From: a virus
Length of the DNA: 34,600 bases
Virus record (IMG/VR): IMGVR_UViG_3300042896_000399
Location: 1-34,600 of that record
Strand: one strand, 5' to 3'
Both the position numbers and the translations under genes were made by a program. The stretch's first letter is position 1. Each line of letters opens with the position of its first letter. Of the stretch, positions 1 to 34,600 are shown in pieces. The notes beneath the pieces are model-generated. The model saw nothing but the letters and a program-made list of their open reading frames with translations, ran no database searches and was not told where the DNA came from.

Positions 1-519
1 GTTTACGTTCGAGAGGGCGCAACATTCACCGCGCCAGCTTTGACGAAATCAGGATATGTTGACGTTCGAGAGGGCGCAACATTCACCGCGCCAGCTTTGA
101 CCGAAGTATCAGGATCTGTTGACGTTCGAGAGGGCGCAACATTCACCGCGCCAGCTTTGACGAAATCAGGATATGTTGACGTTCAAGAGGGCGCAACATT
201 CACCGCGCCAGCTTTGACCGAAGTATCAGGATATGTTGACGTTCAAGAGGGCGCAACATTCACCGCGCCAGCTTTGACCGAAGTATCAGGATCTGTTTAC
301 GTTCGAGAGGGCGCAACATTCACCGCGCCAGCTTTGACCGAAGTATCAGGATCTGTTGACGTTCAAGAGGGCACAACATTCACCGCGCCAGCTTTGACCG
401 AAGTATCAGGATCTGTTTACGTTCGAGAGGGCGCAACATTCACCGCGCCAGCTTTGACCGAAGTATCAGGATCTGTTGACGTTCAAGAGGGCGCAACATT
501 CACCGCGCCAGCTTTGACT
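1..519 (+). repeat. In-frame 57/60-nt tandem repeats, nine units (left end)
   Basis: Unit starts are at 1, 58, 118, 175, 235, 295, 355, 415 and 475, the last one partial. Units are 60 nt when the linker codes TEVSG and 57 nt when it codes TKSG. Copies are otherwise identical except for single-base changes that all alter an amino acid: GAC/TAC, CGA/CAA, GCA/ACA and TCT/TAT. A typical 60-nt unit has 33 G or C, much richer than the AT-rich surroundings. Confidence 0.95.
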
Positions 520-1011
520 TTTAAAAATAATTTTCTTAAAATTAAAAATAAAGAATACTCGATTAGCAGAAATGATGGCATCTTAATGTTTGTTGAAACT
601 TCAAAAACTTCTAAAGGCATTAAAATTAGTTCAGGGTTTTTTAATTTAAAAATAATCGATAATATTCCTGTTTATAGGAATTTATTTCTAGTAGAGAAAG
701 AAGGTTTTTCCGCTCACGGATCAACATTGAAAAAAGCCAATTCAGATCTTCAATTTAAAATAATATCGGAAAAACTAAAAAACGAACCGATAAAAGAAGA
801 TACTTTGCTGACTGTGAAATATTACAGATTAATTACAGGGGCCTGTGATTCTGGGACTCGTGATTTTATGCAAAGAAATGGGTTAGAATTTGAAGTTATC
901 GACGGAGAAACAAAAGAAATTAACCCAATAAAAGCAAAAGATTTATTACCATTGTTAGAAAAAAATAATGCTTATGGAGTAGAAAAATTCAGATCGTTAT
1001 ATGAAGCCTAG
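1..1011 (+). CDS. 3' part of tandem-repeat protein (continues from 34060-34600)
   Basis: This is an open frame from base 1 to the stop at 1009-1011, in the same frame and repeat as 34060-34600. If the ends join, the two pieces make one protein of roughly 518 residues or more. Residues encoded by 1-519 are 19/20-residue units (V-D/Y-V-R/Q-EGATFTAPALT then EVSG-S/Y or KSGY). This spacing of hydrophobic residues suggests a beta-solenoid. A non-repetitive C-terminal domain of about 160 residues follows, with motifs such as KYYRLITGACDSGTRDFM and LLPLLEKNNAYGVEKF. I remember similar tails on other phage and bacterial repeat proteins of unknown role. There is no signal peptide. The stop overlaps the helicase start at 1001, so the two are probably translated together, which points to an early intracellular role rather than a virion part. 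Function unknown. Confidence 0.8.
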   Translation, partial: VYVREGATFTAPALTKSGYVDVREGATFTAPALTEVSGSVDVREGATFTAPALTKSGYVDVQEGATFTAPALTEVSGYVDVQEGATFTAPALTEVSGSVYVREGATFTAPALTEVSGSVDVQEGTTFTAPALTEVSGSVYVREGATFTAPALTEVSGSVDVQEGATFTAPALTFKNNFLKIKNKEYSISRNDGILMFVETSKTSKGIKISSGFFNLKIIDNIPVYRNLFLVEKEGFSAHGSTLKKANSDLQFKIISEKLKNEPIKEDTLLTVKYYRLITGACDSGTRDFMQRNGLEFEVIDGETKEINPIKAKDLLPLLEKNNAYGVEKFRSLYEA

Positions 1012-2575
1012 ACCATACCAGCAATCAGCAGTAACAGAAATTTTAAACACGTTCCAAGATTCGGAACGTGTTTGCTATACTCTAGCCACAGGCGGTGGAA
1101 AAACCGCTTTATTTTCTTTTTTAGCAAAGGAATTTATAGGCGACTCTAGCAAAAGAATTTTTATTTTAGCACATAGAACTGAATTGATCCAGCAAACAGT
1201 TAACACGCTTTTCAATATTGGAATGCGTAGCGAGTCCGTTGTGGCTTCAAAAAAATATTTAAATCATTCAGCACAAGTTTACGTCGCAATGGTGGAAACG
1301 ATTGCAAACAGATTGAAAAAAAATCCTTATTTTCTGCCAAAAATAGATTTGATTATTGTTGACGAATGTCACTTACTTTTTTTTGAAAAGATTTTTGTAC
1401 ATTTTCCGGGAGTTAAAGTTCTCGGAGTTACAGCAACCCCAGCCACAACAATAACCGAAAAAACAATTCGAAAACTTGCAGACGGTTCAGAAATGGAATA
1501 CAAACAAAAATTTGGATTGCATAAAATATACAAAAAGTTGATTGTAGGTTATGGAATTGAAAATCTTATCAATGATGGGAATCTGGTGCCGGAATTGGTT
1601 TTTAAAGATACTCAGATAAAAAGAGAAGATTTGTCATTTGATGAAAAAACTAGCGAGTTTAAACAGACAAATAACCACGCAAAAAAAATGTGTGCTGTTA
1701 CGAATTATGAAAAATTTGCATTAGGTAAAAAGACAATAATTTTTACTGCTTCAACAAAAGACAATCTTTCGTTATTGGCAGACTTCAAAGAACGAGATTA
1801 TGAAAATGTTAGAATTTTTGATTCAGTAAACAAAGAAGAAAGCGGATCCCGTTCAGCGGTTTTAAAATGGTTTGAAACTACTCCAGATGCAATTTTAATA
1901 AATACCGGAGTTTTTACCACCGGATTTGATGAGCCTACAATCGAATGTGTTATGCTCGCAATGTCTACGGCTTCATTATCAAAATATCATCAAATGGTTG
2001 GTCGTGGTGGTCGTTCAACAAAAAAAATATTTAAGGATAAATTTTTGCTGATTGATTTAGGTGGAAATGTTGATACTTTTGGGAAATGGAGCGAACCAGT
2101 TGACTGGGCAGAACATTTTTATTTAACTTCAAAATTGCTTCCGAAAAAAGAAGCGTTAGACAAAATTACTTTTTGCGATAATTGCGATATGATCATTCCC
2201 GCTACAGCTGCCGTTTGTCCTTTTTGCGGTCATGAGAAACCACCTAAATTGGTTCGGCTTTCAGAAGATACTGTGCATGTTTCAGAATTGATTTATCCAA
2301 GTGGATCTAAGATTGTACGATATTGCGAAATGTACGGAAAAGATAAAAATTTTGCGGTGGAGTTATTGTTGACTCAATCAGTGGATCTTTTTATTTACAC
2401 GGAAACAAATTTGCAAAATGTTGAAACAACAATACGAAACGGAAATTTCTTTAAAACAATGAAAAGGATTTTAGATGAAGAAATTTTAATTATTCAAAAT
2501 TCGGGATTGAGTGGTAATTATTCAAAAAATCATATAACAGAACTTATTGAAAAACTTTATAAAACTTTAAAATGA
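1001..2575 (+). CDS. SF2 DEAD/DEAH-type helicase with C-terminal zinc ribbon
   Basis: This 524-residue protein carries the superfamily 2 helicase motifs in order: Walker A ATGGGKT (29-35), DECH box (121-124), TATPATT (motif III-like, about 144-150), and motif VI QMVGRGGR (331-338). A four-cysteine zinc ribbon follows (C392, C395, C406, C409). Phage proteins of this type, related to the UvsW/RadD/YejH-like branch, unwind branched DNA during replication or recombination. That assignment is family knowledge; the exact substrate is not visible. The ATG at 1001 lies inside the end of the repeat gene, and the stop overlaps the VRR-NUC start (ATGA), which indicates translational coupling in the replication operon. 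Confidence 0.9.
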   Translation: MKPRPYQQSAVTEILNTFQDSERVCYTLATGGGKTALFSFLAKEFIGDSSKRIFILAHRTELIQQTVNTLFNIGMRSESVVASKKYLNHSAQVYVAMVETIANRLKKNPYFLPKIDLIIVDECHLLFFEKIFVHFPGVKVLGVTATPATTITEKTIRKLADGSEMEYKQKFGLHKIYKKLIVGYGIENLINDGNLVPELVFKDTQIKREDLSFDEKTSEFKQTNNHAKKMCAVTNYEKFALGKKTIIFTASTKDNLSLLADFKERDYENVRIFDSVNKEESGSRSAVLKWFETTPDAILINTGVFTTGFDEPTIECVMLAMSTASLSKYHQMVGRGGRSTKKIFKDKFLLIDLGGNVDTFGKWSEPVDWAEHFYLTSKLLPKKEALDKITFCDNCDMIIPATAAVCPFCGHEKPPKLVRLSEDTVHVSELIYPSGSKIVRYCEMYGKDKNFAVELLLTQSVDLFIYTETNLQNVETTIRNGNFFKTMKRILDEEILIIQNSGLSGNYSKNHITELIEKLYKTLK

Positions 2576-12070: not shown

Positions 12071-13225
12071 ATGCTAGCAACACCAACACTTACAAACATC
12101 GATTCTAAAGCTAAAATCTTTTTAGCTCAATCTCCAGTCCATTTTAATCTACAAAATGAATTAGGAAATAATTCCATACAATCGGCAACAATTGAAGTTT
12201 ATATTTGGAGAGGTTTTCAGCAAGCCGATTTACCGCTATCTCCAAATATTGTTTTTAACAATGTAAAAAAGATTTCGCCACAAGATACTTACATCGCAAT
12301 TGAATTGCACAATGAAATCAAAGCCTTCATTACTTCCAGCAACCTCAATAAGAATAATCCGCAATGGGCGTATAATACGACGTCAGTACCTACAACCGCA
12401 GGCGAAGGGGTTTATTTTCATGTTGTTTATAAAGTAGACAACGAAAGCGTTAAACAGTTAGGGACTTATTTTGCTACTTCTGGCTATCGTTACAACTTCG
12501 AGCAAAAAGGCGGCCCATATACGGGCTATGACGACATTGAGACGCTAAGAAAATACGCCTTTGGAATTAATTACGACAAAAATACGATCAACAGAACCAC
12601 ATCAGTGTCCACCTCTCAATCTGGAGCAGGTGCAAATGGAATGATTACACAACAATCATTGAATCCAAGCGCAAGAAATAAGCAAACGGGCGTATCTTGT
12701 TTGATTGCTTACGTTAATAGATTGGGTTTATGGGACACTTTTACGCCTTTTGGTAAGTTTGTTGAATCAATCGACACTAAAAGATACGAGTTTTCTAGTT
12801 CATTTCGTGATCCTTTGAATGTAAATAGCCAAATCCAGCACTTAAAACAGACAGGCGCACCACGTGGAGTAAGAAAATTTCAAGTAAATACAGGTTTGAT
12901 TGATGAAAATAATAATTATCAAGTGCGTGAGATCCTTCAAAGTTCAAAAGTTTACCTGGTAATTTTTGGAGACGATGTTTACCAATCAATTCAAACAGGA
13001 ATTACAGTTGATAGCACAGTAGTCACGGTTGATAACACGACTATTACAGTTGATAGCGATGTAGTTACCGAAGCAAATTTAGGATTCTATTCGAAGTTTA
13101 CGCAGATACCAGTAAAAAATTCAACTACAAACTTTTTAAAGAAAACAAGATTGAACGATAAAAGCTCAATTTCTTATAATTTGGAATTTGAAGAAACAAA
13201 CAATTTTATAAACTCGATTCTGTAA
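12071..13225 (+). CDS. Probable tail structural protein, 384 aa
   Basis: The start is ATG 12071 and the stop overlaps the next gene (TAATGG). The protein is strand-rich, with no signal peptide: SATIEVYIWRG, YIAIELHNEI, GVYFHVVYKVD. Near residues 312-332 there are three tandem seven-residue units, TVDSTVV, TVDNTTI and TVDSDVV, a pattern seen in structural phage proteins. Position directly before the baseplate-like protein and tape measure supports a virion tail role. I cannot tell whether it is a tail-tip, sheath-like or tube component. Confidence 0.55.
   Translation: MLATPTLTNIDSKAKIFLAQSPVHFNLQNELGNNSIQSATIEVYIWRGFQQADLPLSPNIVFNNVKKISPQDTYIAIELHNEIKAFITSSNLNKNNPQWAYNTTSVPTTAGEGVYFHVVYKVDNESVKQLGTYFATSGYRYNFEQKGGPYTGYDDIETLRKYAFGINYDKNTINRTTSVSTSQSGAGANGMITQQSLNPSARNKQTGVSCLIAYVNRLGLWDTFTPFGKFVESIDTKRYEFSSSFRDPLNVNSQIQHLKQTGAPRGVRKFQVNTGLIDENNNYQVREILQSSKVYLVIFGDDVYQSIQTGITVDSTVVTVDNTTITVDSDVVTEANLGFYSKFTQIPVKNSTTNFLKKTRLNDKSSISYNLEFEETNNFINSIL
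13004..13066 (+). repeat. Three in-frame 21-nt tandem repeats
   Basis: Units at 13004-13024, 13025-13045 and 13046-13066 code TVDSTVV, TVDNTTI and TVDSDVV. They differ by several substitutions, some of them synonymous, so they are older than the repeats at the window ends. Confidence 0.8.
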
Positions 13226-24358: not shown

Positions 24359-26008
24359 ATGAAAAAATTACTTTTTTTACTATTATGCACGGTCTCAATG
24401 TACGGACAAGTTCCGGCAGACGCTACACCATTAGAGAATATTCAAATAACGAATAATGTAACTGACAATTCAGCCACAAAAGTAGTTGTGCAAAATTCAA
24501 ACGGGGTTTTGAATACTATTGCAAAATCTAGTCTTGGAACCGTTACAAGCATTACAGGTACGGACGGCATTACAGTAGCTAACGGAACCACTACGCCTGT
24601 AATAGGAGTTAGCTCAATAGCACAATCTAAAGTAACGGGATTAGTTAGTGATTTAGGGAATACTGTAAAACTAACAGGCGACCAAACTATTAACGGAATT
24701 AAGAATTTTGATAATATTTTAATTAAAGATAATTTCGATATATCTGTACCGCATTCGATTGGTCAGCCTATTAATACTAGCGATGCGTGGTATATTTATG
24801 GAGCCTCTACCGAAGTAGATAAAGGCGAAATGGTTTTCCAAGTTGGAGACAATGGTGCGCCGTATGCGAGTAACGGTCAGCGTTTTAGATTCCATTATAA
24901 TGCGGATGCTAGCGGAATATTGAAATCGCCTTTAATTATAGATTATGACGAAATTGTAGCAGATGCAAATTTAACGGCAAAAACCTTTAAAAAAACAGGT
25001 GGTGCAAGTTCGCAATTTTTAAAAGCGGATGGTAGTGTTGATTCTAGTACTTACGCACCTATTGCAAGTCCTGCATTAACAGGTACGCCAACTGCGCCAA
25101 CAGCTATTTTTGGAAATAATACAACACAGATTGCTACAACTCAGTATGTGCAATCAGAATTAATTTTCAAAGCTTCGTTATCTTCTCCAAGTTTCAATGG
25201 AACACCGACAGTACCTACCGCAATTTTTGGAAATAACACAACGCAAATAGCATCGACTCAATATGTGCAATCAGAATTAGGGTTTTCTTTGCCTTTAAAA
25301 GCGAATTTAGCTAGCCCGACTTTTACAGGAACAGTTATTGCTCCAACGGTAATTGCAGGTACTAGCGACACTAAAGTGGCTACAACTAATTTTGTTTCTA
25401 CTGCTATTTCAAATGCATTAGCAGGACCGATTACCAGTATTAATTTAACAGGAACCCCAACAGCACCAACGGCAACAATCGGAACGAACACGACGCAGAT
25501 TGCGACAACTGCATTTGTATTGGCAAATACGGGAAGCGCGCCTGTACAATTAAAAGATTTTTATTCTAATAGCGGGAATACAAATACAACTGAAACGGAC
25601 TTGCTTTTTTATTCAGTAGCAGCAAATAGATTAAACGCTACAGGTGAAAAATTAATTTCAAACTTTGCAGGTACTTTTAACGACGTGACAGCATCAAGTC
25701 AATTGAAATTATATTTTGCAGGTACAAATATAGCGGACACAGGGGCATTGACCATGAGTGTAACAGGCGCATGGGTTACTACTATATCTATTATTAGAAC
25801 AGGAACGACAACAGCAAGAGCTATAGTAAATATGTCAACACCAGGAGCAAGCACAGCAGCATACACAAAATACACTTCTTTGACGGGGCTGTCATTTACA
25901 GGGACTAATTTAATTAAAATAACAGGAACAGCAGCAGGTGCAACAGCAAGTGATGGTGACATAGTAGCAACTTACGGTAATATCATTTGGCAACCAGCTG
26001 CATTATAA
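24359..26008 (+). CDS. Tail fibre with N-terminal signal-peptide-like sequence
   Basis: This 549-residue protein starts with a clear signal-peptide-like stretch (MKKLLFLLLCTVSMYGQ, basic start, hydrophobic core, polar end). From residue about 235 there are four fibre repeats of the form 'sPaltGTPTAPTA..G.NTTQIATTqyV' (DNA about 25060-25530), as in trimeric tail fibres. The C-terminal domain is strand-rich. Fibres normally assemble in the cytoplasm, so the leader is odd. It may be a domain borrowed from a host secreted protein, or mark a non-virion secreted form. The stop overlaps the start of a 22-residue peptide (TAATG). Confidence 0.75.
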   Translation: MKKLLFLLLCTVSMYGQVPADATPLENIQITNNVTDNSATKVVVQNSNGVLNTIAKSSLGTVTSITGTDGITVANGTTTPVIGVSSIAQSKVTGLVSDLGNTVKLTGDQTINGIKNFDNILIKDNFDISVPHSIGQPINTSDAWYIYGASTEVDKGEMVFQVGDNGAPYASNGQRFRFHYNADASGILKSPLIIDYDEIVADANLTAKTFKKTGGASSQFLKADGSVDSSTYAPIASPALTGTPTAPTAIFGNNTTQIATTQYVQSELIFKASLSSPSFNGTPTVPTAIFGNNTTQIASTQYVQSELGFSLPLKANLASPTFTGTVIAPTVIAGTSDTKVATTNFVSTAISNALAGPITSINLTGTPTAPTATIGTNTTQIATTAFVLANTGSAPVQLKDFYSNSGNTNTTETDLLFYSVAANRLNATGEKLISNFAGTFNDVTASSQLKLYFAGTNIADTGALTMSVTGAWVTTISIIRTGTTTARAIVNMSTPGASTAAYTKYTSLTGLSFTGTNLIKITGTAAGATASDGDIVATYGNIIWQPAAL

Positions 26009-31373: not shown

Positions 31374-31835
31374 TTAATTTAACACTTCACTTTTTAAAAA
31401 GTAACTCACGTTTTTGTGAAACTTTTTCTTTTTCCATTTGTTCTTGTGCGCCAATGTCCATAATTGCATGGTGTCAAGTCCTAAATGCGCTTTCAATTCT
31501 GTTGAAGAAATGTAGTCATCCGGGATAATTAATTTTGAAGCGATCACAATGTCAATTGCGTCAATGTCGCAAAATTTGTAGTACTGAATTCCTCTGCTAA
31601 TATACGATATAAATTCAAGTCCCTTGTCTTGGATCCCTTGTTTTATTTTTTTCGCTCCAATTCCGAGTGTTTTAATCGCTAAACTTTTGGCGATATATTC
31701 GGGATTTTCTGACAAGTCCGCGGTCTTGTAAGTAAGTTCTTTTTGCTTGGCTATCGCTTTGTTTTTTGAGTAGTCCAATTCCCGTGACATCATGGTCACG
31801 GGGTTTAGGTTGGTAGTCCAAAAGTCTTTTATCAT
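31374..31835 (-). CDS. Hypothetical protein with C-terminal DNA-binding-like region, 153 aa
   Basis: The start overlaps the stop of the Rad50-like gene (ATGA). The N-terminal half is helical and Lys-rich (SKNKAIAKQKELTYKTA). The C-terminal part, DYISSTELKAHLGLDTMQLW followed by basic residues, looks like a winged helix or excisionase-like HTH. It lies inside the recombination operon, but no family was recognised. Confidence 0.6.
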   Translation of the reverse strand: MIKDFWTTNLNPVTMMSRELDYSKNKAIAKQKELTYKTADLSENPEYIAKSLAIKTLGIGAKKIKQGIQDKGLEFISYISRGIQYYKFCDIDAIDIVIASKLIIPDDYISSTELKAHLGLDTMQLWTLAHKNKWKKKKFHKNVSYFLKSEVLN

Positions 31836-33265
31836 GCTCCCAAAACTTTTAAATTAATAATTTGCGCGTCAATCGGGTATAACTCCGAAACGCTCTCACG
31901 GTTATCAATCCATATTGGGAATTTTAACCCTATCTTTTGACTTAATACAGACACAATCTGAACGCCTGCATTGATTCGTTCACTCAATGAAAAATCTTTG
32001 AACTCAGTACCTAAAATGTTAGTGCACTTGCATTCGTTTTCAATATCGAAAAATAACCCGTCAAAATTGTCGTTAATTGATTTGTAGTAATTGTCTACCA
32101 AGAAAGTTGCAAAGCGATCCATAAAACCCTCGATTGCCATCATTTCGGCCGTGAATGCGTCGAGTGCTTTTTGTTCTTTTTCTATCTTTTCTTTCAAAGT
32201 AAACACATCATTTCCTTTTGAAATTTGAATGCTTAATAACGATATTCCTTTTCTTAATTCCGCAATTATAACCGTTGTAGTCTCGTCTGGCTTTGTTTTT
32301 GAAAGTGCTTCAAATTCCGTTACCAAAAGAGCGTTTGACATTCTTAATTTTAAGATCTTATTTTTGATCGTGTCTAATGAGCTTTCAAGTTTGGAGACTC
32401 TATTTTTTTTCAATTCGTCAAACTTTTCCACTGATAATTTAGTGCCACAGGTTTCGCAGCCTTTGTGATCCTCTAGCTTATCGTTTTTGATAATTGAAAT
32501 CTCTAGTTCTACTTTTTTATATTCCGCTACACTTCGCGCATATTCTCTTTTTTCACTGGTAAGATTGGTTTCTTTTTTGTAAAAGTTATTCCAATCAAAA
32601 TTGGACAGCTTTTCGAGTTCAGCGGTTTTTGTCTCCAACTCCTTTTTTAAACTCAAAAAATCGACTTCGACAATTTCGGCTAAAGATTTTTCGTGCACTT
32701 CGATTATTGTGATGCATTTTTTCAAACCATCATTAGCGTCCTTTTTTTGCTTTGTTTTGGATTTACGAATATCGGATATTGACATCGACTTCATCAAAAA
32801 TGAGAACTCACTATTTTCAGATACTTTTTCGCAAAATAATCCTGTTAGGTAATTTCTTCTAACTTCCCAATGCAAGTTCATGAACGCCAAAGGATTTGCA
32901 AGAAATTCCAATGTTTCAACATTGTAAATGTGGCTAAGGAAATCTTCGAACACATTCTTTTTTACTTCAAGATTATTGTAAGACCATTTGCCTGGTTCTT
33001 TTGAAAGAGTAATTTCCGTGCCATCAACATCGATAACTATTGTTACTTTAGTTTTTGGGTTTTCGACATTGTTAGATTCAACGGTAAATCTTGAATTTTG
33101 TTCAGAATTTTTTGAGAATATAACCCAGCTAAAAGCATCGAAAAAAGTTGTTTTTCCTGTTTTGTTTGGTTTTTCTATGAAGTTTTCACCTTCTTGAAAG
33201 GTTATTTTTTCGTGACGGATTCCTCGGAAGTCCGTAAGTTCGATTGATTTTATTGTTGTTTTCAT
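31832..33265 (-). CDS. Rad50/SbcC-like AAA ATPase, 477 aa
   Basis: The N-terminus KSIELTDFRGIRHEKITF is the typical SMC/Rad50 start. The P-loop is KPNKTGKTTFF; the usual first Gly of GxxxxGKT is Lys here. The middle is coiled coil with a CETCGTKL zinc-hook-like pair. The C-terminus FPIWIDNRESVSELYPID corresponds to the Walker B/D-loop region of phage SMC-like ATPases (usually 'PIFIDNaESV'). At 477 residues it is short compared with SbcC. It probably remodels DNA ends together with the MBL protein and RecT (inference). It has no adjacent SbcD. Confidence 0.8.
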   Translation of the reverse strand: MKTTIKSIELTDFRGIRHEKITFQEGENFIEKPNKTGKTTFFDAFSWVIFSKNSEQNSRFTVESNNVENPKTKVTIVIDVDGTEITLSKEPGKWSYNNLEVKKNVFEDFLSHIYNVETLEFLANPLAFMNLHWEVRRNYLTGLFCEKVSENSEFSFLMKSMSISDIRKSKTKQKKDANDGLKKCITIIEVHEKSLAEIVEVDFLSLKKELETKTAELEKLSNFDWNNFYKKETNLTSEKREYARSVAEYKKVELEISIIKNDKLEDHKGCETCGTKLSVEKFDELKKNRVSKLESSLDTIKNKILKLRMSNALLVTEFEALSKTKPDETTTVIIAELRKGISLLSIQISKGNDVFTLKEKIEKEQKALDAFTAEMMAIEGFMDRFATFLVDNYYKSINDNFDGLFFDIENECKCTNILGTEFKDFSLSERINAGVQIVSVLSQKIGLKFPIWIDNRESVSELYPIDAQIINLKVLGA

Positions 33266-33266
33266 G

Positions 33267-33506
33267 TTATTTTTTAGATTGTAAAATAGTTAACATTTGA
33301 GATATTGCAACGGTGCCTGATTCTTCAAAGTAATTCAATAGATTTCCTCTAAAGTAAGAATACAAAGAAGTATCGTATCTGTCGTAGCTGGCAGTTATCA
33401 AATTGCATTCTGGATTCACTGAAAAGTGAAATCCTTTTTTTAAGCAAATATTAATTACTTTTTTTAAATCGGACATTGCTTTTTTTTCTGCTTCTATTTT
33501 TTTCAT
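33267..33506 (-). CDS. Hypothetical protein, 79 aa
   Basis: The frame ends one base before the Rad50-like start and its ATG overlaps the stop of the HTH gene. The N-terminal helix KKIEAEKKAMSDLKKVINI is basic; the rest has Tyr-rich strands (ASYDRYDTSLYSYF). No family recognised. Coupled to the recombination genes. Confidence 0.6.
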   Translation of the reverse strand: MKKIEAEKKAMSDLKKVINICLKKGFHFSVNPECNLITASYDRYDTSLYSYFRGNLLNYFEESGTVAISQMLTILQSKK

Positions 33507-33757
33507 GACTCAAAAATTAATTGTATTTTAAACCCCATTTTTCCCCCTATTTGCTTATTATATTCAATAAGGCTTTCAATTTTACCATTAAAAAAGAACG
33601 GTAATTCAATTTCATTATCAATACATACTTTTTCAAGTGTTTCAATAGTTGGAGATGTAGATCCGTTGGCCCATCTTTGAATAGTGTATTTTGATTTTCC
33701 TATAACGCGTTTCTTTTCTTTAAGAATTTCCGTGAATACTTGCTGTAACTTGCTCAT
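33503..33757 (-). CDS. Cro/XRE-like helix-turn-helix protein, 84 aa
   Basis: SKYTIQRWANGSTSPTIETL matches the XRE/Cro-type HTH pattern (recognition helix followed by 'G.s.Ptietl.k'). It is the second gene after the promoter at 33935-33995. It may control that promoter and its related copy at 29793-29831; this is inference. Its start lies within the end of the previous gene. Confidence 0.7.
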   Translation of the reverse strand: MSKLQQVFTEILKEKKRVIGKSKYTIQRWANGSTSPTIETLEKVCIDNEIELPFFFNGKIESLIEYNKQIGGKMGFKIQLIFES

Positions 33758-34017: not shown

Positions 34018-34025
34018 TATATTTG
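34018..34025 (+). promoter_or_regulatory. Rightward early promoter (-7 TATATTTG) for the repeat gene and replication operon
   Basis: TATATTTG followed by CA lies 34 bases before the ATG at 34060. TTG triplets at 34000 and 34005 lie closer than the usual -33 spacing, so the upstream element is uncertain. With the leftward promoter it makes a divergent early control region. Confidence 0.55.
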
Positions 34026-34059: not shown

Positions 34060-34600
34060 ATGAAAATTAAAGGAGATTTAATTGTAACAAAAGAGAATCA
34101 AAAAGATTTTAAAAAATTGACCGAAGTATCAGGATCTGTTTACGTTCGAGAGGGCGCAACATTCACCGCGCCAGCTTTGACCGAAGTATCAGGATCTGTT
34201 TACGTTCGAGAGGGCGCAACATTCACCGCGCCAGCTTTGACCGAAGTATCAGGATATGTTGACGTTCGAGAGGGCGCAACATTCACCGCGCCAGCTTTGA
34301 CGAAATCAGGATATGTTGACGTTCGAGAGGGCACAACATTCACCGCGCCAGCTTTGACGAAATCAGGATATGTTGACGTTCGAGAGGGCACAACATTCAC
34401 CGCGCCAGCTTTGACGAAATCAGGATATGTTGACGTTCAAGAGGGCGCAACATTCACCGCGCCAGCTTTGACGAAATCAGGATATGTTGACGTTCAAGAG
34501 GGCGCAACATTCACCGCGCCAGCTTTGACCGAAGTATCAGGATCTGTTTACGTTCGAGAGGGCGCAACATTCACCGCGCCAGCTTTGACCGAAGTATCAG
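34060..34600 (+). CDS. 5' part of tandem-repeat protein (continues at 1-1011)
   Basis: The ATG at 34060 opens a frame without stop to the window end. The non-repetitive leader MKIKGDLIVTKENQKDFKK precedes LTEVSGS, then the repeat units start at 34138. 'kGDLiv...' followed by T-Vs-Gs-V-VrEGA units resembles beta-solenoid repeat proteins whose rungs begin with a similar 'GdL.v' strand. There is no signal peptide or membrane helix. It is the first gene of the rightward early transcript and is followed, after the seam, by its C-terminal domain and the helicase. It stops mid-codon at 34600; five bases (the rest of GGA and TCT) would restore the frame at base 1. Confidence 0.8.
   Translation, partial: MKIKGDLIVTKENQKDFKKLTEVSGSVYVREGATFTAPALTEVSGSVYVREGATFTAPALTEVSGYVDVREGATFTAPALTKSGYVDVREGTTFTAPALTKSGYVDVREGTTFTAPALTKSGYVDVQEGATFTAPALTKSGYVDVQEGATFTAPALTEVSGSVYVREGATFTAPALTEVS
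34138..34600 (+). repeat. In-frame 57/60-nt tandem repeats, eight units (right end)
   Basis: Units start at 34138, 34198, 34258, 34315, 34372, 34429, 34486 and 34546, the last lacking five bases. Sequence and variants are the same as in 1-519. Confidence 0.95.

What the first reader, a model, noticed from the sequence alone, without database searches (positions are those of the whole stretch)
1..519. Repeat copies differ only at amino-acid-changing positions
Across 17 units the only differences are GAC/TAC (D/Y), CGA/CAA (R/Q), GCA/ACA (A/T), TCT/TAT (S/Y) and an in-frame TEV/TK linker change. No synonymous difference was seen. Variants are reshuffled between units, and TAC follows TCT in every case that can be read. 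Either the array expanded very recently by recombination, or variation at a few exposed positions is selected. The changes are not A-specific, and no reverse transcriptase gene is present, so this is not a classic diversity-generating retroelement. The repeat is also about 55% GC in an AT-rich genome. It could be a fast-varying surface for binding host factors.
Basis: partly seen in the sequence, partly recalled or inferred. Interest (0 to 1): 0.75.

Follow-up and report, generated by a model that had tools for sequence, protein, structure and literature searches.

The report
Phage repeat protein with variable binding face
A virus of bacteria carries a rod-shaped protein built from nearly identical 20-residue repeats, in which recombination keeps the DNA of the repeats uniform while selection keeps a few surface residues different, a pattern known from fungal self-recognition genes and, as far as I could find, not described in phages.

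Summary
The window is a 34.6-kb phage contig cut inside one gene (34060-34600, then 1-1011). The gene encodes an N-cap, at least 17 units of 19-20 residues and a conserved C-terminal domain (CTD). The reported variation is real, with two corrections. 'TAC always follows TCT' is false (5 of 8), and a synonymous ACC/ACG difference is locked to the linker change. In the window alone, 'no synonymous difference' is not significant (P about 0.2). Related phages decide it. In nine phages with the same unit (64 units), 34 codon positions vary within arrays; all 34 changes are amino-acid changing and none is synonymous. Each phage has its own uniform set of synonymous codons, with 5-13 codon differences between phages. 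The same states recur at the same places: S/Y, D/Y, R/Q, Q/E, and a long or short linker. The same register is variable in unrelated repeat backbones fused to the same CTD. AlphaFold predicts a confident beta-solenoid. Two Riemerella phages with identical flanks differ by exactly two units. Best reading: an early, probably cytoplasmic, phage binding protein whose array is homogenised by recombination and diversified by selection on its face. The target is unknown. No reverse transcriptase was found.

The parts
34060..34116 (+). N-terminal cap of the array protein (MKIKGDLIVTKENQKDFKK)
   Evidence: ORF and translation; similar caps (MKI.GNLIIT.ENQ-like) occur in L006, L008, L009, L046, L058, L076
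34117..34600 (+). Repeat units 1-8 (the last one cut by the contig end)
   Evidence: TRF; unit table
1..516 (+). Nine further repeat units, continuing the same gene across the contig ends
   Evidence: TRF; unit table; AF2 beta-solenoid with pLDDT about 98 over most of the array
517..1011 (+). Conserved C-terminal domain (AHG.T.KKA..DL.FK ... YYRLITGAC ... LLPILEK.NAYG), with stop codon; no Pfam, NCBIfam or PADLOC match
   Evidence: alignments A1-A2, family scans, AF2
34018..34025 (+). TATATTTG, a match to the Bacteroidota -7 promoter motif TAnnTTTG, upstream of the array gene (by inspection, not tested)
   Evidence: sequence read; motif from general knowledge
33503..33757 (-). Small helix-turn-helix-like ORF read divergently from the array gene; the same kind of neighbour is next to the array in L012 and L008
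   Evidence: by inspection of the sequence
1001..2575 (+). DEAD/ResIII helicase, the next gene; together with the VRR-NUC gene (2572-2955) it marks an early/DNA-metabolism module
   Evidence: Pfam ResIII 6.5e-25, VRR_NUC 1.7e-5

Best explanation
The gene encodes an early, probably cytoplasmic, modular phage binding protein. A single-file beta-solenoid of the leucine-rich-repeat/receptor-L-domain kind is fused to a conserved C-terminal domain. Each unit has the register G-X1-h-X2-h-X3-X4, where h is a presumably buried hydrophobic residue (V here). X1 (S/Y), X2 (D/Y), X3X4 (RE/QE here; RQ/QE elsewhere) and a linker of two kinds (TEV/TK) vary. Shown: the units of one array are uniform at synonymous sites, synonymous codons differ strongly between phages, and the same amino-acid alternatives recur at the same positions. 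Array length can change by whole units while the flanks stay identical. Inferred: unequal recombination between units homogenises and reshuffles the array (concerted evolution), and diversifying selection maintains or re-creates differences at the exposed positions, so that the face can change quickly in charge and aromatic pattern. Inferred with less certainty: the face binds a variable host protein, such as a defence or takeover target, and the C-terminal domain carries the common function.
For: Nine same-unit arrays, 64 units: within arrays 34 nonsynonymous and 0 synonymous polymorphic codon positions; 5-13 fixed synonymous codon differences per pair of phages and at most 2 nonsynonymous. 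MK-type Fisher P=9e-17; counting each distinct dimorphism once (8:0 against 2:30), P=6e-7. Third bases agree within a phage but differ between phages (TCT/TAT or TCC/TAC; GAC/TAC or GAT/TAT; CAG/GAG or CAA/GAA), so the dimorphisms outlived, or were re-made after, homogenisation of the base next to them. In 11 arrays with other backbones the same register holds 27 of 42 nonsynonymous and 1 of 14 synonymous polymorphisms (hypergeometric P=1.4e-10). In L051 the record has N at exactly these codons (TNC, NAC, NTA, AGN, NAG), plus the linker Thr. Four-gamete combinations occur at 7 of 10 site pairs in the window. Riemerella phages CRP5 and CRP6: 2000 bases upstream, the CTD and 280 bases downstream identical, but 4 units against 2, the units differing only at amino-acid-changing bases. 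AF2: mean pLDDT 90.6 and 94.6, with the V-X2-V strand in the units. The same CTD is fused to at least nine unit types, and the same unit to three C-termini: separable modules. Early-gene neighbourhood in window, L012, L008, L076, CRP6. The gene is missing from related Riemerella phages with conserved flanks: accessory.
Against: No target, expression or binding data exist. In the other-backbone arrays as a whole, nonsynonymous to synonymous is 48:18, not above the roughly 70:30 expected without constraint; only the placement of the changes is skewed there. The nine arrays may share ancestral dimorphisms, so the counts are not all independent. Outward orientation of X1 and X3 rests on strand alternation, not on measured coordinates. 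Many contigs break in or near the array, so unit order and number are unreliable. No solved structure matches clearly (best VIA-align Z 7.8, in the range seen by chance).
Confidence: 0.66

Rival explanations
1. Neutral recent expansion: the array was duplicated so recently that only a handful of mutations exist, and by chance all change amino acids.
For: In the window alone 4-5 changes with none synonymous has P about 0.15-0.25, and expansion certainly occurs.
Against: The same sites and the same residues vary in eight other phages with different synonymous codons. 34 of 34 nonsynonymous has P about 7e-6, and 30 of 34 fall on 4 of 15 positions (P about 8e-20).
Confidence: 0.05
2. A dedicated mutator, DGR-like or otherwise targeted, rewrites the variable codons.
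For: The same few codons are hit again and again, and third bases next to them are homogeneous, which looks like re-creation of the same states.
Against: No RVT_1 match in 13 phage records while the control genomes ring. Changes are G/T, C/A, G/A, C/G and a linker length change, with no A-specific or other single signature. The CRP5/CRP6 difference is gain or loss of whole units.
Confidence: 0.06
3. The array is a structural fibre or receptor-binding protein of the virion.
For: Weak, below-cut-off Pfam match to Gp80, a podophage fibre protein; beta-solenoids are common in fibres.
Against: The gene lies beside a helicase, VRR nuclease and HTH-like ORFs, away from the tail-fibre gene at 24359-26008. 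In Riemerella phages it lies next to ERF and the replicative helicase and is absent from relatives with the same flanks.
Confidence: 0.12
4. Assembly artefact: several strains' short repeats were stitched into one array.
For: The window, L010/L031 and L014/L015 are contigs with both ends inside the array; L051 has N in the array.
Against: Complete arrays sit inside contigs (L006, L008, L046, and L076 in a 575-kb contig) and in an isolated phage (CRP5), with the same pattern. Mis-joining cannot remove synonymous differences.
Confidence: 0.05

Closest known systems
HNWD WD40 repeats with high internal conservation (het-d, het-e, het-r of Podospora anserina; PMC1805685, PMC12222747, PMC2873952)
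   Same: Near-identical tandem repeats homogenised by concerted evolution; four codon positions per repeat variable and under diversifying selection at the predicted binding surface; unit loss, duplication and reshuffling; separate effector domain.
   Different: Fungal NOD-like receptors with a NACHT domain and a WD40 propeller; recognition demonstrated genetically. Here: phage, solenoid of the LRR/L-domain kind, no NTPase domain, no demonstrated target.
PRDM9 zinc-finger arrays (PMC3890296; seen as abstract only) and TAL-effector repeats (general knowledge)
   Same: Coding minisatellites with a uniform backbone and variable specificity-determining residues.
   Different: Those bind DNA with a known code; no DNA binding is shown or predicted here, and the fold is different.
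LRR_5/BspA-type, FNIP and receptor-L-domain repeats (PF13306, PF05725, PF01030)
   Same: Some proteins with the same C-terminal domain have repeats that match these families, and the solenoid architecture is similar.
   Different: The window's own units do not reach the cut-off of any of them.
Phage diversity-generating retroelements
   Same: Restricted variable codons on a binding face.
   Different: No reverse transcriptase, no A-directed changes; diversity lies between tandem units of one gene.

Membership tests
Concerted-evolution ('high internal conservation') repeat arrays under diversifying selection | Units far more alike within a gene than between related genes, at synonymous sites too | tested here: met
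   0 synonymous polymorphisms within nine arrays against 5-13 synonymous codon differences between phages
Concerted-evolution ('high internal conservation') repeat arrays under diversifying selection | A few fixed codon positions with excess amino-acid change | tested here: met
   30 of 34 variable positions at X1-X4; register confirmed in other backbones
Concerted-evolution ('high internal conservation') repeat arrays under diversifying selection | Unit number changes between close relatives | tested here: met
   CRP5 4 units, CRP6 2 units, identical flanks; one pair only, and the CRP5 record begins inside the array
Concerted-evolution ('high internal conservation') repeat arrays under diversifying selection | Variable residues lie on the binding surface | tested here: inconclusive
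   AF2 places X2 mid-strand between two V residues; no coordinates measured, ligand unknown
Leucine-rich repeat / receptor L domain families (PF13306, PF01030) | Profile match above the curated cut-off | tested here: not met
   Window array: Recep_L_domain 11.9 bits against a 21.8 cut-off, no LRR_5 hit; the Riemerella member does exceed the LRR_5 cut-off
Diversity-generating retroelement | Reverse transcriptase gene | tested here: not met
   0 of 13 phage records; records may be incomplete
Diversity-generating retroelement | A-specific substitutions relative to a template repeat | tested here: not met
   Changes are GAC/TAC, CGA/CAA, GCA/ACA, TCT/TAT and CAG/GAG
Known anti-phage defence proteins (PADLOC) | Profile match | tested here: not met
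   No match for the window fragment 1-1008 or the L006 array protein; one marginal match (KwaA, E 0.009) for L076
HNWD/NLR receptors | NACHT NTPase domain | tested here: not met
   The protein is cap + array + CTD; Pfam finds no NTPase in it

The most novel reading that the evidence does not exclude
The units form a combinatorial recognition code. Each unit takes one of two or three states at each of four places, toggling charge (D/Y, RQ/QE, E/K) and aromatic character (S/Y), as in minimal Tyr/Ser/Asp synthetic binder libraries. Phages re-write the array by recombination to follow changing host targets, in effect a phage-borne repertoire of adaptable binders plugged onto exchangeable effector domains.
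Probability: 0.17. Interest if true: 0.92.

Novelty: new variant of a known kind. Interest (0 to 1): 0.74.

Why it matters
Arrays that are homogenised by recombination and diversified at a few surface codons are known from eukaryotic self/non-self recognition. Finding the signature in a phage protein family, repeated in unrelated repeat backbones on one shared C-terminal domain, points to a fast arms race with an unknown bacterial partner and to a natural scaffold for programmable binders. It is directly testable with cultured Riemerella and Flavobacterium phages, and it predicts that short-read assembly systematically hides such genes, because contigs break in them.

Tried and rejected
PDB and BFVD fold searches: no clear solved relative; best VIA-align Z 7.8 is in the chance range, with insulin-receptor L domains and beta-solenoids mixed; four uncharacterised phage proteins in BFVD at E below 1e-5. 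Profile search of PDB sequences: nothing significant. tblastn of the array against named phages: no match, possibly masked as low complexity. CTD in Flavobacteriaceae genomes: only 3 of 397 genomes, one strong, so the domain is mainly viral. A looser DNA pattern brought mostly chance single matches in unrelated proteins. The GC anomaly as a sign of foreign origin: rejected, since it is mostly amino-acid composition and GC3 is only moderately raised on one effective unit. The rule 'TAC follows TCT': rejected. Papers: nothing on phage arrays of this kind in the open-access library, which is not exhaustive.

Full report
WHAT IS THERE. The window is a complete 34,600-base viral contig whose two ends lie inside one gene. 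The gene starts at 34060 on the + strand (MKIKGDLIVTKENQKDFKK), runs through eight units to the contig end, and continues at base 1 with nine units and a 163-residue C-terminal domain (CTD) ending at 1011. The finding's 1-519 is therefore the second half of a gene broken by assembly. At least two related contigs (L014+L015 and L010+L031) are broken the same way. Unit number and order across the break are unknown.

CHECKING THE OBSERVATION. The variants named are all present. In the 15 core codons no synonymous difference exists among the units. Two statements need correction. The Thr codon of the linker is ACC in TEV units, ACG in TK units and ACT at the C-cap, so a synonymous difference does exist, locked to the linker. 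TCT is followed by TAC in five cases but by GAC in three; only the converse holds. On its own the window gives little: with 29-31% of possible changes synonymous, none in 4-5 events has P about 0.15-0.25. Seven of ten pairs of variable sites show all four combinations, which needs recombination or recurrent mutation inside a 60-base unit.

THE RELATED ARRAYS DECIDE. DNA-pattern and protein scans of IMG/VR and GTDB contigs found eight further phages or prophages with the same unit, V-X2-V-X3-X4-G-A-T-F-T-A-P-x-L. In every one, all units share the same synonymous codons, and these codons differ from phage to phage: for example GCT ACA TTC ACG GCT CCT in L007, GCA ACC TTC ACC GCT CCT in L010 and GCA ACT TTT ACT GCT CCT in L076. 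Yet the same alternatives recur in the arrays: S/Y, D/Y, R/Q with Q/E, and a long or short linker. Counted over nine arrays and 64 units, 34 of 135 array-by-codon positions vary within an array; all 34 are nonsynonymous and none is synonymous. Pairs of phages differ by 5-13 synonymous codons and 0-2 nonsynonymous ones. An MK-type table gives P=9e-17, and P=6e-7 if each distinct dimorphism is counted once. Even the third base of the variable codon follows the phage: TCT with TAT, or TCC with TAC; GAC with TAC, or GAT with TAT. Whatever homogenises the arrays reaches the base next to the variable one, so the dimorphism was kept by selection or made again. These data cannot tell which.

UNRELATED BACKBONES, SAME REGISTER. 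The CTD is fused to at least nine kinds of units, including LRR_5/BspA-like repeats in Riemerella phages annotated 'ribonuclease inhibitor'. Conversely the window's unit type occurs with three different C-termini (the CTD; the one in L014/L076; the one in L010). In eleven arrays with other backbones that share the register G-X1-h-X2-h-X3-X4, 27 of 42 nonsynonymous polymorphisms but only 1 of 14 synonymous ones fall on X1-X4, which make up 44 of 179 positions (hypergeometric P=1.4e-10). The register was fixed from the first set of arrays, but I had already seen the second set, so this is not a blind test. Summed over other-backbone arrays the ratio 48:18 is about what no constraint would give; the case there rests on placement. 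In L051 the record has N at exactly the variable codons and the linker Thr, as expected if nearly identical units or variants were collapsed.

CHANGE OF UNIT NUMBER. The isolated Riemerella phages CRP5 and CRP6 are identical over 2000 bases upstream, over the CTD and 280 bases downstream, but have four and two units. The extra CRP5 units carry GAT/AAT, TGG/GGG and GAT GGC/CGT GAT changes, all amino-acid changing, with no synonymous one. About ten other Riemerella phages with the same flanks lack the gene. The gene is accessory and its array is plastic. The CRP5 record starts within the array, but its extra units contain variants absent from CRP6, so they are not a copy artefact.

STRUCTURE AND PLACE. 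AlphaFold gives a confident solenoid for the window fragment (mean pLDDT 90.6, most of the array about 98) and for the complete L006 protein (94.6, pTM 0.77). Each unit has a V-X2-V strand and a T-F-T strand. By strand alternation X1, X2 and X3 should share the outer face; I could not measure this. PDB matches are in the chance range. The gene lies beside a helicase and a VRR nuclease. In L012 and L008, too, it lies next to an HTH-like ORF and a helicase; in CRP6 it is near ERF and the replicative helicase; L076 is in a prophage-like early region of a Flavobacterium MAG. This argues for early, intracellular expression rather than a virion fibre.

MECHANISM. Best supported: concerted evolution by recombination between units, plus diversifying selection at a few face positions of a modular binding protein. 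The variable states toggle charge (D/Y; RQ/QE; TEV/TK) and aromatic character (S/Y). The closest known evolutionary parallel is the WD40 array of Podospora HNWD receptors, where four codon positions per repeat are under diversifying selection on the interaction surface and repeats evolve in concert (PMC1805685; PMC12222747; PMC2873952). It works like that system. It is not a member of that family, as it has no NTPase domain and a different fold. It is not a DGR. The ligand and the CTD's role are unknown; a host defence or takeover target is my inference.

NOVELTY. The kind of evolution is known; in a phage protein, across several repeat backbones on one CTD, I found no report, within the limits of an open-access library.

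Noticed in passing
window 24359-26008: Predicted tail-fibre protein with internal repeats (GTPTAPTA.FGNNTTQIATTQYV), matching several PHROG tail-fibre families.
   Followed up: no
window 12995-13068: Short 21-base tandem repeat within ORF 12071-13225, coding for VTVDSTVVTVDNTTITVDS.
   Followed up: no
window 31832-33265 (-): ATPase with PHROG recombinase/endonuclease matches and weak PADLOC matches to LmuB, GajA and PtuA; probably a Rad50-like phage recombination gene.
   Followed up: no
L014 1-582 and L076 907-1623: The same array type fused to another uncharacterised C-terminal domain (CGTTHCVAGWIQIFEKDKYNE), without a Pfam or NCBIfam match when tested for L014.
   Followed up: partly
L010 reverse strand 1-885: The same array type fused to a third C-terminus ending CPSTGREYFIGTNKNSCKAAKMESFGL; it looks like DUF6745 from memory, but Pfam gave no match.
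   Followed up: partly
L003 4979-5299 / L057 3896-4297: CTD without an array; looks like a remnant or re-fused domain.
   Followed up: no
PP511318.1 (L018): 'Dulem virus 31' is filed under Microviridae but is a 35.8-kb record with exonuclease and replisome-organiser genes; the taxonomy looks wrong.
   Followed up: no
OQ791282.1 (hit H8): 'Shigella phage Henu10' is about 97% identical to Riemerella phages over this region; the host label may be wrong.
   Followed up: no
L077 1-306: A GC-rich version of the array at the end of a 9-kb contig binned as Pseudorhodoplanes (Alphaproteobacteria); either a mis-binned phage or a wider host range.
   Followed up: no
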